Assembly (NCBI GenBank): GCA_902794895.1
Contig: CADBIY010000016.1
Span: forward strand, 1-34,910
Direction: 5' to 3'
Length of the DNA stretch: 34,910 bases
Source of the DNA: Candidatus Avelusimicrobium vaccinum
GTDB taxonomy: Bacteria > Elusimicrobiota > Elusimicrobia > Elusimicrobiales > Elusimicrobiaceae
Positions 18,974-34,910 of this stretch are shown one piece after another (position 1 is the stretch's first letter; every line of letters starts with the position of its first letter). The translations under genes were made by a program, and so were the position numbers. The notes below the pieces were generated by a model, which saw only the letters and a list, made by a program, of their open reading frames with translations, was not told the DNA's origin and did no database searches.

Positions 18974-19347
18974 TTTGGCTAAACGCAAACGGCTGTTCGT
19001 ATGACCACGTAATTCGCAGAAAAGGGACAATGAAGAATTGTCCCTTTTCTTGCTATTAAGGGCCAACGATTTTCCAAATTCTGCCAATTTGCGTGTGATT
19101 GGTGCTTGCCGTACCTGGCAGTACGGCTCTGCGCGCCACTTACCCACGCACCTTGGAGCGAATTTGAAAAATCAGGACAATCTTCCATAGTGTTAGTTTG
19201 CTATGCACGACATTTTTACGTTATTCGCGGTGTATTTTGAAGGGGTTGGACAAACGTCGTTTGGCGCGATCTGCCCGTGCGGCGAGCACCTTGTCAAGCC
19301 CATTTTTTGGCCTATTTATCGTCGTAGAAATTAAAAGATGCTGTTTG
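18974..19347. other. Intergenic region with structured segment, no convincing gene
   Basis: After the osmC terminator (19018-19050), about 300 nt remain before the pilin promoter. There is a perfect 7-bp hairpin (19108-19114 with 19121-19127) enclosed by GGTGC (19101-19105) and GCACC (19148-19152). A 69-codon minus-strand reading frame covers part of it but has no ribosome-binding site and no recognisable protein. It may be a structured RNA or an intergenic repeat; I cannot tell. Confidence 0.4.
19018..19050 (+). terminator. Terminator of the J-protein/OsmC operon
   Basis: A perfect 14-bp stem (19018-19031 with 19037-19050), GAAGA loop and a TTTTCTT tail. Confidence 0.9.
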
Positions 19348-19370
19348 TTTTTTTTTTTTTGATATATAAT
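19348..19370 (+). promoter_or_regulatory. Pilin promoter with T13 tract before TATAAT
   Basis: A run of 13 T (19348-19360) is followed by GATA and a consensus TATAAT (19365-19370). A clear -35 hexamer is not visible. A small hairpin (AGGGA-CAGC-TCCCT) precedes the ribosome-binding site AAGGAG. Confidence 0.5.
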
Positions 19371-19403
19371 TTAAAGAGGGACAGCTCCCTAAGGAGAAAT
19401 GAT

Positions 19404-21482: not shown

Positions 21483-22328
21483 CTAATTTTTGATGATTTC
21501 TAAATAATTGCGTACGTACGTTAAGCGCCGGTCATCGTGGCTTTTGTTTAACGTGTAAATCATATTGGCCAAGAACCGGCGGACAATTTGACGGGAGGAT
21601 AGCGGGGTAAAGAAATCGTCTGTCCACGCTAAACAACGCGCTTCAATGTATGTTCGGCAATCTTCAGCAGATAAAATTTTGCCGTTATCCAGCGGATCAA
21701 TAAAGAAAAATTCCCGGTCGGTATTTCCTTGTAAATAGACTAGAACACGTCCGGCTAAATCGATAAGTCCGGTTTCTAACCCATATCGTTGTCCGAGGAC
21801 CATATACAGACAGGCCACACATAATCCGGCCCCCTTTTTTTTACGGAGAAACCGGGCAAAAGATAAATTCTTAATATCTTGGTTTACGGGAAGTGCTTGT
21901 ATTTGCAGTATGCGGAAGAAATAGTTACTTAAAATAGTAGCAATTTCTTCGTAGTTTTTTGCATTTAATAAAGGGGTTTTTAGCGGTTGTGCCCATTGAT
22001 CCACTCGGTCCGAAATATCTGCACGTTCGGAAGCCGTTTCAATAAACTTAGCAATTAAGGCAAGCCCTTCTTCCAGATCCGGGTTGATTTTGGCAGCAAA
22101 CCGGGCAAAAGCATGAGTTAAATCTTCCCAGCAGATCTCTTCTAGGGTATGTACAACCGGTAAAGGGGTATTACCGGAAAATTCATTTTCTAATACGAGG
22201 TGCACCTGACGAGGATTTTCCTTTAAGGCAGCCGCAATTTCGCGCTTGATGACGGAACCGTAAGTGTCTGCTTCGGTTTTAAGTAACTGGAATAAAGCCT
22301 TTAGGCGTACGTCATCATAGATTTGCAT
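21483..22328 (-). CDS. SirB1-like transglutaminase-fold protein
   Basis: A protein of about 281 residues whose centre resembles the SirB1/UPF0162 transglutaminase-like core: KKKGAGLCVACLYMVLGQRYGLETGLIDLAGRVLVYL, split here as KKKGAGLCVACLYMVL and the rest, followed by FFFIDPLDNGKILSAEDC. The molecular role of this family is not established, and the TPR tail of E. coli SirB1 is absent. I choose ATG 22328 because TATGCT lies 6 nt before it, matching the leaderless layout of other genes here. The alternative ATG at 22364 adds 12 residues encoded partly by an A9 run and has no ribosome-binding site either. It leads the operon with the NfeD-like and SPFH genes. Confidence 0.7.
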   Translation of the reverse strand: MQIYDDVRLKALFQLLKTEADTYGSVIKREIAAALKENPRQVHLVLENEFSGNTPLPVVHTLEEICWEDLTHAFARFAAKINPDLEEGLALIAKFIETASERADISDRVDQWAQPLKTPLLNAKNYEEIATILSNYFFRILQIQALPVNQDIKNLSFARFLRKKKGAGLCVACLYMVLGQRYGLETGLIDLAGRVLVYLQGNTDREFFFIDPLDNGKILSAEDCRTYIEARCLAWTDDFFTPLSSRQIVRRFLANMIYTLNKSHDDRRLTYVRNYLEIIKN

Positions 22329-22436
22329 ACTGATAGCATAGCAAATTAGTGTTTTTTTTTCCATAGTTTTTGAAATGTTATTTTCTTTTTAATGTAAGTT
22401 TTCCGCGAGGAAGATTTGCGGTTATTAACAGAACGC

Positions 22437-22463
22437 TTGACATCTTTTTTTTTTTGATAAAAT
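22437..22463 (+). promoter_or_regulatory. Pilin promoter with T11 tract in the spacer
   Basis: A consensus TTGACA (22437-22442) and TAAAAT (22458-22463) are separated by only 15 nt, 11 of which are an uninterrupted T run (22445-22455). Adding two T would give the optimal 17-nt spacing. Confidence 0.65.
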
Positions 22464-22500
22464 TTGATTTATAGTAGATATAAAAGGAGGGATACATATT

Positions 22501-23007
22501 ATGAAAACAAATCAAAATTTAAGCGGTTTTACCTTGATAGAATTGCTTGTAGTGGTGTTAATTATCGGTATTTTGGCCAGTGTTGCGCTGCCGCAATACC
22601 AAAAAGCGGTGGAAAAAAGCCGGGCGGCAGAGGCTTGGAGTACGCTAAAGGAGATCAATGATGCCGAACAATTTAAAAATATGGAAGAAGGAACTACGGG
22701 CATCGTTTATAACTTTAGCGAATTACCGATTAATTTTCTCAATAAATATGGCACATCCGCTACAGAACGTGAAATCTTGGGAACTAATTTTAATTTTTAT
22801 ATCTATGAAGGCGGGGTATTGGGTACTAGTGGTGAGTATGAGCCGGCGTGGGCAGAGGCAACGGGGCATGGAAGATGGTATCGCTTAGGATTTTCCCAAG
22901 GTAGAAAAGTATGTACTGAAAGCGTGAGTGATAATTTTTGCAAAAGTATTTTAGGGAGTAGTAGGGCTATAGATTGCGGCACTTCGGTCAGTTGTTATGT
23001 AGAATAA
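22501..23007 (+). CDS. Type IV pilin-like protein (PulG/PilA family)
   Basis: A 168-residue prepilin with leader MKTNQNLSG, mature [20 protein letters not shown] with Glu5, and the helix continuation [20 protein letters not shown]. The first 50 residues nearly match the pilin at 19404; the rest diverges, ending with Cys residues (KVCTES, FCKS, DCGTS, SCYVE). AGGAGG precedes the ATG at 22501. Its promoter contains a T11 tract. The 3' end overlaps the end of the minus-strand rbfA remnant by 20 nt. Confidence 0.93.
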
Positions 23008-23237
23008 AATAGGCTCCAATTTCTTTTCGCAGCAGATCAAGGGCTTCTTGCGTTTTTTTGCGGTCATCCGGACTTCCAAAGACGGAGAAAAAAACTTTTA
23101 CGTGGATTAAATCTTTGGAAAGATGAACGGCTGTAATGGTTACAAAACCGCCAAAATCGCCATTGGCGGCCATTTTGGTAATAAGCGTATTATAAAATTT
23201 CTAACCGTTTAATTCTATCTATCATGTTTTTTAGCAT
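22988..23237 (-). pseudogene. rbfA: Broken ribosome-binding factor A (rbfA) homologue
   Basis: Two overlapping frames together read as RbfA. From 23237 (or the internal ATG at 23225) the sequence reads [11 protein letters not shown] and stops. One base away, the next frame continues [16 protein letters not shown], then [20 protein letters not shown] and [19 protein letters not shown], matching the RbfA core (FVTVT-V-VS-DL--AKVYVSVLG). Removing one T from a TTTT run (complement of about 23194-23197) joins them. The C-terminus stops early ([12 protein letters not shown]), lacking the final 25-40 residues, and overlaps the end of the pilin gene. No ribosome-binding site is visible. RbfA normally assists 30S maturation and sits beside infB or truB; neither is here. 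A sequencing error could explain the shift but not the short C-terminus. Confidence 0.6.
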
Positions 23238-23309
23238 TTTGTTTTTTATCCATTGTAAAAATAAATGTGAGAAACCGCGAATTTCTTGCAGATGGGGTGG
23301 CAGAGGGAC

Positions 23310-23390
23310 TTGACATCTTTTTTAGGGGGGAGGAAATTTTAATTTATAGTGAATATGAAAGGAAGGATCTTTTTATGAAGAAAACAAAAT
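23310..23390 (+). pseudogene. Relic of a pilin promoter, leader and start codon
   Basis: From TTGACATC (23310) through the ribosome-binding site (AAAGGAAGGAT) to ATGAAGAAAACAAAA (23375), this stretch parallels the promoter and leader of the pilin at 22501 (TTGACATC, T tract, then AATTTATAGT against GATTTATAGT, then AGGAGGGAT). The T tract is cut to 6 and a G6 run follows. After five codons typical of a pilin leader (MKKTK), the sequence runs directly into a terminator hairpin; no FTLIE segment remains. Confidence 0.6.
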
Positions 23391-23417
23391 GCCCCAATCA
23401 ACAGATTGGGGCATTTT
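23386..23417. terminator. Terminator of the OmpA-domain lipoprotein gene
   Basis: A perfect 14-bp stem (23386-23399 with 23404-23417), AACA loop, with T runs on both sides. It serves the minus-strand gene ending at 23432 and would also end any transcript from the pilin relic. Confidence 0.9.
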
Positions 23418-23431
23418 TGATATTGCGGTGT

Positions 23432-24067
23432 TTATTGAATATCTTTTTCGTTTGCCGTAATGGACAAAACTACGCGGCGGTTGGCGGCACGTCCTTCTTC
23501 GGTATCGTTGCTGGCTACCGGATTGGAAGCACCGAAACCAACATAGGTGATGCTTAACGTTTTTAAACCGCTGCCCAACAAGAAATCATAGACCGCTTTT
23601 GCACGGGCAGTAGATAACTTTTGGTTGATAGCAACAGAACCGGTAGAATCGGTATATCCTTGTACCACAATGCGGTTTTTCGGATATTTTTTAAGTACAC
23701 GGTTTAAATCCGTCAAGGTTTGCAAAGAAGCCGCGGAAAGTTCGGCGCTTCCTACGGCAAACAGGATATCATTCTTTAAGTATACTTGAATTCCGTTGGC
23801 AGATTTAACGACGTCCGCAATAGCGGCTAATTCTTTGGCTTGTTTATCGTAGTAATTACCCAAAGCACCGCCGGCCGCAGCCCCGGTTAAAGCACCGATA
23901 ATGGCTCCAGTTCCGCTTTTTCCGCCGGTGTTGTGGGAAATGATCGCTCCGGCCGCAGCGCCTACTGCAGCACCTCCGGCTGCACCCCAAGCCGTCCGTT
24001 TACCGGGCGTGGTGCAGGCAGAGAGTAACAACGCACAAACTGTGCATAGTAACAACGCTTTTTTCAT
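23432..24067 (-). CDS. OmpA-family lipoprotein with glycine zipper
   Basis: A 211-residue outer-membrane lipoprotein. The signal MKKALLLCTVCALLLSAC has its lipobox Cys at 18. Residues about 28-72 form a glycine-zipper region (GAAGGAAVGAAAGAII, GAIIGALTGAAAGGALG). Residues about 95-205 form the OmpA peptidoglycan-binding domain (VQGYTDSTGSVAINQKLSTA, then GFGASNPVASNDTEEGRAAN and RRV). This is the YiaD-like arrangement and would tether the outer membrane to peptidoglycan. AAGGAG precedes the ATG at 24067. It lies next to a second OmpA-domain lipoprotein but is separated from it by a terminator. Confidence 0.92.
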   Translation of the reverse strand: MKKALLLCTVCALLLSACTTPGKRTAWGAAGGAAVGAAAGAIISHNTGGKSGTGAIIGALTGAAAGGALGNYYDKQAKELAAIADVVKSANGIQVYLKNDILFAVGSAELSAASLQTLTDLNRVLKKYPKNRIVVQGYTDSTGSVAINQKLSTARAKAVYDFLLGSGLKTLSITYVGFGASNPVASNDTEEGRAANRRVVLSITANEKDIQ

Positions 24068-34716: not shown

Positions 34717-34749
34717 TTGACTAATCGTTTTTTTTTTTTTTGGTAAAGT
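34717..34749 (+). promoter_or_regulatory. Pilin promoter with T14 tract
   Basis: TTGACT (34717-34722), then AATCG, a run of 14 T (34728-34741) and TAAAGT (34744-34749). The spacer is 21 nt; losing about four T would bring it to 17. Confidence 0.5.
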
Positions 34750-34756
34750 TTTTCTA

Positions 34757-34839
34757 TATTGGATGAGGGGGGATGTATCCCCTGTTATTAAAACGCTTAT
34801 AAAGGCGTTTTAATAAGAAATAGTCATTTATATCCAATA
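34757..34839 (+). promoter_or_regulatory. Structured pilin 5' leader, possible three-way junction next to the ribosome-binding site
   Basis: TATTGGAT (34757-34764) can pair with ATCCAATA (34832-34839), enclosing two hairpins: GGGGA/TCCCC (34769-34782) and a perfect 12-bp stem (34785-34796 with 34805-34816). The closing stem ends just before AAGGAG (34839-34844). Confidence 0.5.
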
Positions 34840-34849
34840 AGGAGAACGT

Positions 34850-34910
34850 ATGAACCAACGGAAAAAGAAAGCGTTTACCCTGACGGAATTATTAGTAGTG
34901 GTAGTCATTA
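34850..34910 (+). CDS. Type IV pilin-like protein, truncated by window end
   Basis: Only the first 20 residues are in the window: MNQRKKKAFTLTELLVVVVI. The basic leader and hydrophobic FTLTELLVVVV segment with Glu5 identify a prepilin. Unlike the other three pilins here, the residue before the cleavage site is Ala instead of Gly, and Thr replaces Ile at +4. AAGGAG lies 5-6 nt upstream of the ATG. The leader is long and structured, with a T14 tract near the promoter. Confidence 0.85.
   Translation, partial: MNQRKKKAFTLTELLVVVVI

What the first reader, a model, noticed from the sequence alone, without database searches (positions are those of the whole stretch)
23310..23417. Orphan pilin promoter and start codon ending in a terminator: a deleted pilin locus
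The stretch from TTGACATC to ATGAAGAAAACAAAA matches the upstream region of the pilin at 22501 almost step by step but lacks the pilin body; five leader-like codons run straight into a terminator. The T tract has shrunk to 6 with an adjacent G6. This looks like a pilin gene lost by deletion after local duplication, showing turnover of the repertoire. Alternatively it now produces a very short RNA of about 80 nt ending at the hairpin.
Basis: seen in the sequence. Interest (0 to 1): 0.6.

Follow-up and report, generated by a model that had tools for sequence, protein, structure and literature searches.

The report
Dead pilin promoter, a gene-loss scar
In an uncultured gut bacterium that carries about sixty pilin genes, this stretch is the broken start of one more pilin gene whose body is missing, sitting in a recently inserted block that the nearest relatives lack, so it records pilin genes coming and going.

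Summary
23310-23374 aligns with the upstream region of the pilin at 22501 (score 60; 0 of 1000 dinucleotide shuffles reach it) and belongs to one pilin promoter subfamily. No pilin body follows.

Three parts of the interpretation change. (1) The terminator belongs to the convergent ompA-like gene; relatives have one at the same place whether or not a pilin is present. (2) The "start codon and leader" are ambiguous: their A-rich letters fit pilin starts and the pre-terminator sequence of relatives about equally. (3) "Local duplication" is not supported: the relic is as close to a distant pilin (score 50) as to 22501 (51).

New context: the transglutaminase-ompA gap is 1067 bp here and at most 150 bp in 25 of 30 measurable relatives, and 82 bp in the two nearest. 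The extra block holds pilin 22501, a truncated, frameshifted rbfA copy (23013-23241) and the relic. Three relatives carry a pilin in this gap; a fourth carries a pilin whose 5' half was deleted between short direct repeats. A second remnant lies elsewhere in the genome.

Most likely a scar of pilin turnover; a short RNA is unlikely.

The parts
21483..22364 (-). transglutaminase-like gene, left border of the gap
   Evidence: ORF; Pfam PF13369 3.1e-22
22437..22500 (+). intact pilin promoter and 5' UTR: TTGACA, T11 tract inside the spacer, TAAAAT, AAGGAGGGAT
22501..23007 (+). intact type IV pilin-like gene (168 aa, [16 protein letters not shown]...)
   Evidence: Pfam N_methyl PF07963 6.8e-8
23013..23241 (-). 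broken copy of the 5' part of rbfA (to about codon 79, with a 14-nt deletion that shifts the frame); the intact gene is on contig C5
   Evidence: 219/243 with 14 gap columns to own rbfA; Pfam RBFA 4.5e-9 for the 61-aa ORF; 211/225 to own rbfA against at most 186/225 for 10 relatives
23242..23309 (.). spacer of unknown origin between the rbfA copy and the relic
   Evidence: no similarity to 22370-22436; the match to the C5 locus ends at 23241; no hit covering it in the own genome or in the 36 relatives searched
23310..23374 (+). orphan pilin promoter/5' UTR relic: TTGACA, T6-A-G6, lost -10, AAAGGAAGGAT
23375..23389 (+).
23386..23417 (-). intrinsic terminator of the ompA-like gene (hairpin is near-symmetric, may also stop + strand transcripts)
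   Evidence: a terminator at the same place in relatives
23432..24067 (-). OmpA-family gene with glycine zipper, right border of the gap
   Evidence: Pfam OmpA 7.6e-22

Best explanation
23310-23374 is the decayed promoter and 5' untranslated region of a second pilin gene. It belongs to a block of roughly 1 kb (pilin 22501, a broken rbfA copy, a spacer, the relic) that most likely entered the gap between the transglutaminase-like and ompA-like genes after this lineage split from its nearest sequenced relative. Shown: the homology, the missing body, the block being absent in the nearest relatives, the loss of the -10 box. Inferred: that a pilin body was there and was deleted (about 0.55), as opposed to a copy that stopped at the promoter. 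Mechanism, inferred: pilin cassettes arrive with their own switchable poly-T promoter, rely on the terminator of the convergent neighbour, and are lost by recombination between short repeats. The relic itself most likely does nothing now.
For: Similarity far above shuffles and to a promoter subfamily of six pilins on four contigs. Gap 1067 bp in the window, at most 150 bp in 25 of 30 relatives with both border genes, and 82 bp in the two nearest relatives L154 and L155. The rbfA copy is closer to own rbfA (211/225) than to any of 10 relatives (at most 186/225), so it was copied after those splits. Order and orientation rbfA(-) then pilin promoter(+) equal those of the intact rbfA-pilin locus on C5. 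Pilins with poly-T promoters sit in the same gap and orientation in L188, L215 and L223; in L219 the pilin has lost its 5' half, with an 11-nt repeat at both deletion borders in L215 and one copy left in L219. A second promoter-plus-leader remnant at C22:12870-12953. Five of 62 pilin hits, away from contig ends, have open frames of only 62-108 codons.
Against: No fragment of a pilin body remains next to the relic, so deletion itself is not seen here. The start codon stretch is on average no closer to pilin starts than to pre-terminator sequence (mean scores 15.21 for 62 pilin starts and 15.19 for the pre-terminator set). The 68-bp spacer does not match the C5 rbfA-pilin spacer, so a single copying of rbfA plus promoter from the present C5 locus is not demonstrated. 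The genome is in 30 contigs and its named relatives are metagenome bins, so mis-assembly cannot be ruled out, although the rbfA copy differs from rbfA by 14 substitutions over 225 aligned bases and a deletion.
Confidence: 0.72

Rival explanations
1. Fragment copy: the block was copied in with only the promoter end of a pilin cassette; no second pilin body was ever present here.
For: No trace of a pilin body beside the relic; the rbfA copy is itself a truncated fragment ending at about codon 79, so partial copies do occur; the similarity fades at the start codon.
Against: Intact pilins in the same gap of relatives L188, L215 and L223 end just before the ompA terminator, as a full second pilin would have done; internal loss of a pilin is seen in L219.
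Confidence: 0.3
2. Live short RNA: the promoter still fires and makes an RNA of about 80 nt ending at the hairpin.
For: A strong hairpin; 23340-23425 folds at -27.5 kcal/mol, z -5.6, 0 of 200 shuffles fold as well.
Against: The fold is mainly the terminator of the convergent gene. No -10 hexamer better than 3 of 6 at spacings 12-21 from TTGACA; 5 of 6 only at 22 and 29. The consensus promoter scan does not list the relic. No Rfam family at gathering score. In 22 same-genus genomes only two weak partial hits.
Confidence: 0.05
3. Antisense tail: when the poly-T switch of pilin 22501 is on, its transcript has no strong own terminator and runs through the rbfA copy, giving an RNA antisense to the rbfA start region (42 nt exact, 211 of 225 aligned bases in all), so that a surface switch would also touch ribosome maturation.
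For: Orientation of the copy and the exact 42-nt stretch over the rbfA start codon; only a weak terminator-like site on the + strand between 23007 and 23386.
Against: Block not seen in the relatives examined; no expression data; simple by-product of the insertion.
Confidence: 0.03
4. Chance resemblance in AT-rich sequence.
For: T and A runs are common in these intergenic stretches.
Against: 0 of 1000 shuffles, also without the T tract; only two sites above threshold in the window for the subfamily profile.
Confidence: 0.02

Closest known systems
Pilin gene remnants and silent copies in organisms with large pilin repertoires (for example pilS partial copies of Neisseria; recalled)
   Same: Incomplete pilin sequence kept near an intact pilin gene
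   Different: pilS copies lack the promoter and start and keep the variable body (recalled); here the promoter is kept and the body is missing, so it cannot serve as a donor of variable sequence
Phase-variable promoters with a homopolymer in the -35/-10 spacer (Bordetella fim, Neisseria porA/opc, Mycoplasma vlp; recalled)
   Same: Intact pilin promoters here have a T tract (6-17 in the 20 counted) between -35 and -10
   Different: The relic has T6-A-G6 and no -10 box; length variation between cells was not tested
Pilin-rich Elusimicrobiota genomes (Elusimicrobium minutum; its genome paper is not held; recalled)
   Same: Many N_methyl pilin genes, mostly scattered singly; 62 hits here
   Different: Poly-T pilin promoters and turnover scars: nothing on them seen in the listings or the passages (open-licence library only)

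Membership tests
Type IV pilin-like gene (PF07963 N_methyl) | leader plus N-terminal methylation motif G-FTLIELL | tested here: not met
   no N_methyl hit at 23375 onward among the 62 genome hits; the frame reads MKKTKCPNQQ (within ORF 23267-23557)
Promoter of the pilin subfamily (22501, C5:5032, C7:68232, C5:88557, C5:67190, C1:90896) | shared sequence from -35 through TTTATAGT..ATAT to GGAGGGAT | tested here: met
   homology by alignment and profile, with the -10 lost
Sigma-70-type working promoter | -10 hexamer of at least 4 of 6 at spacing 15-19 | tested here: not met
   best 3 of 6
Phase-variable homopolymer promoter | tract length differs between cells of one strain | not testable with these tools
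   needs reads; only one assembly
Intrinsic terminator | GC-containing hairpin plus T run | tested here: met
   - strand 23417-23386, 14 pairs; same place in relatives
Known small RNA family | Rfam gathering score | tested here: not met
   7 sub-threshold matches only, best 29.9 bits against a cut-off of 49
Gene remnant by deletion | intact version of the same gene at the same place in a related genome | tested here: inconclusive
   other pilins in the gap of L188, L215, L223; no intact version of this block; empty site in nearest relatives

The most novel reading that the evidence does not exclude
The gap between these convergent genes is a preferred landing site for pilin cassettes that carry a poly-T switch promoter but no terminator of their own and borrow the terminator of the neighbour. 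Cassettes are gained and deleted repeatedly, taking along flanking fragments such as the rbfA piece, and the relic is the scar of one cycle. This would be a mobile, phase-switched pilin repertoire with no known mobilising enzyme.
Probability: 0.25. Interest if true: 0.65.

Novelty: new member of a known kind. Interest (0 to 1): 0.36.

Why it matters
It turns a list of about sixty pilins into a dynamic repertoire: one gap can be compared across dozens of relatives and shows empty, occupied, scarred and double states. That makes the rate and mechanism of pilin gain and loss in uncultured gut Elusimicrobiaceae directly testable. The scar itself is an ordinary pseudogene-type remnant.

Tried and rejected
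Local tandem duplication of 22370-23007: rejected as the simple origin, because the upstream parts are unrelated and the relic is equally close to C5:88557. Single-step copying of rbfA plus promoter from the present C5 locus: not demonstrated, the match stops at 23241; a former state of that locus remains possible. Searching relatives for the relic itself: 2 of 22 same-genus genomes gave weak partial hits, none of 14 same-order genomes did; I did not inspect those two places. Other lone promoters: of the pattern hits I fetched 15 stretches and printed 14 sites away from listed pilins; one (C22) is a remnant, the others look like coding or unrelated sequence by eye. A search with the promoter of the second subfamily gave 17 places; setting aside one 18-nt match, 15 of 16 lead into a listed pilin and C22:12870-12953 does not (compared by eye). 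Ten gaps over 150 bp in other relatives were read for pilin pieces: three hold a pilin, L219 a piece, six nothing. The tallies overlap in genomes and must not be added; gap lengths start at the first matched residue of the transglutaminase and so run a little long, and the L077 value rests on a weak match (E 0.49). Three loci and 27 had no measurable transglutaminase and were left out of the counts. Papers: listings seen; passages of PMC8809381 and PMC11257099 read; the E. minutum genome paper is not held.

Full report
What is there. The window is a whole 34.9-kb contig (C16) of a 1.45-Mb, 30-contig genome whose nearest named relatives are uncultured Elusimicrobium / Elusimicrobiaceae bins, several of them labelled as from rumen or faeces. 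The genome has 62 hits to the N_methyl pilin motif.

The resemblance is real. 22400-22530 against 23242-23417 scores 60 where 1000 dinucleotide shuffles reach at most 37; without the -35 box and T tract it still beats all 1000. A profile from five other promoters of the subfamily, made without 22501, finds 22438-22511 (E 1.2e-13) and 23317-23388 (E 5.6e-4); the next site in the window has E 0.11. The resemblance begins at the -35 box: the 67 bases before it are unrelated (941 of 1000 shuffles do as well). In a whole-genome search with the pilin and its upstream region, 35 places match; only 23309-23390 is confined to the promoter/leader part.

The hairpin at 23386-23417 scores as a terminator on the minus strand, just after the ompA-like stop, and relatives without any pilin have a terminator at the same position. 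The ATGAAGAAAACAAAA stretch lies in the T-tail of that terminator on the other strand. Scored against 62 pilin starts and against the pre-terminator sequence of relatives, the means are 15.21 and 15.19; the best single matches are pilin starts (27), the best pre-terminator match is 23. So it may or may not be a pilin start. The relic is as close to the pilin at C5:88557 (50) as to 22501 (51), which speaks against a recent local duplication. The T tract is T6, then one A, then G6.

The broken rbfA copy. 23013-23241 is the 5' part of rbfA on the minus strand, 219/243 identical with 14 gap columns to the intact rbfA on contig C5, with a 14-nt deletion that shifts the frame. It is nearer to own rbfA (211/225) than to that of 10 relatives (at most 186/225), so it was copied within this lineage. 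On C5 rbfA stands back to back with a pilin of the same subfamily, the same order and orientation as rbfA copy and relic here. The exact match stops at 23241, four bases outside the rbfA start codon, and the 68-bp spacer that follows is unlike the C5 spacer, so one-step copying from the present C5 locus is not shown. In the two nearest relatives I saw no pilin in the 400 nt upstream of rbfA (read by eye).

The site in relatives. In 34 loci examined (window included), 31 had both border genes. The gap is 1067 bp in the window and at most 150 bp in 25 of the 30 relatives; the other five have 268, 350, 654, 768 and 1524 bp (one of the 25 rests on a weak match). In a second, overlapping set of 73 named loci, 46 had both genes, 36 with a gap of at most 150 bp; a pilin motif was found in three gaps (L188, L215, L223), all convergent with ompA. 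L154 (96 percent OmpA identity) and L155 (92 percent) have gaps of 82 bp. The block therefore arrived after the split from L154, or was lost cleanly there. How many separate gains the four occupied gaps stand for is not settled: L188 and L223 could share one, L215 and L219 do.

A deletion caught in a relative. L219 has a relative of the L215 pilin (194/244 over the 3' part) but without the start and 5' half. In L215 GAAAAA(A)GGAGC occurs at the RBS and again inside the gene, about 334 bp apart; in L219 one copy remains at the junction. This is what loss between short repeats looks like, in this very gap. In the window's own genome, C22:12870-12953 has the promoter, RBS and leader of another pilin subfamily followed by a 40-codon frame without FTLIELL that ends CLSGSVCYME, similar by eye to pilin C-termini such as SVSCYVE. 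Five of 62 pilin hits, away from contig ends, have frames of only 62-108 codons.

Does the relic do anything? Intact promoters have TTGAC, a T tract and a -10; by a strict rule 20 of 62 pilins show TTGAC plus at least six T within 130 bases upstream, tracts 6-17 (one of them interrupted by N). This count is a lower bound because some upstream regions are cut by contig ends and some -35 boxes deviate. The relic has no hexamer better than 3 of 6 at spacings 12-21. Its RNA would fold well (z -5.6), but mainly because of the terminator. Rfam gave nothing at gathering level. I judge it dead.

Verdict. A pilin promoter relic inside a young inserted block; deletion of a pilin body is likelier than a truncated copy, but not proven. 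Ordinary in kind, useful because the gap can be read across dozens of relatives as empty, occupied, scarred or double. Names of comparison systems (Neisseria pilS, Bordetella fim, Mycoplasma vlp, E. minutum) are recalled and come from no call, except that E. minutum is mentioned in the passages of PMC8809381.

Noticed in passing
22437-22460; 19344-19372; 34730-34760; other contigs: Many scattered pilin genes share a promoter with a T tract between the -35 and -10 boxes, which would change the spacer length: 20 of 62 by a strict rule. A genome-wide set of possible on/off pilin switches.
   Followed up: partly
L142 (own genome C22:12870-12953, -): A second pilin remnant: poly-T promoter, RBS and leader codons, no FTLIELL, short frame ending CLSGSVCYME.
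   Followed up: yes
L219 compared with L215: Pilin whose 5' half is deleted between 11-nt direct repeats, in the same transglutaminase-ompA gap of another bin.
   Followed up: yes
own genome C7:36358, C2:174988, C2:42371, C25:14167; relative L088: Some pilins seem to have an extra palindrome-rich stretch in the leader before FTLIELL (motif like catgctgaacttgattcagcatct), as if a repeat element had inserted in frame.
   Followed up: no
window 34859-34910 and the end of contig C15: Two contigs break in the same start of an MNQRKKKAFTLTELL pilin; two further genes with this start code for 529 aa, so these long pilin-like genes are repeats that break the assembly.
   Followed up: no
23013-23241: The rbfA copy would be transcribed antisense if pilin 22501 reads through; 42 nt over the rbfA start codon are exact.
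   Followed up: partly
window 22501-23007 against other own pilins: Paralogues share the promoter and about the first 64 residues at high identity, then differ (for example C5:88557, 73 percent over 64 aa; 87 percent DNA over 186 nt), which suggests exchange of 5' parts between pilin genes.
   Followed up: no
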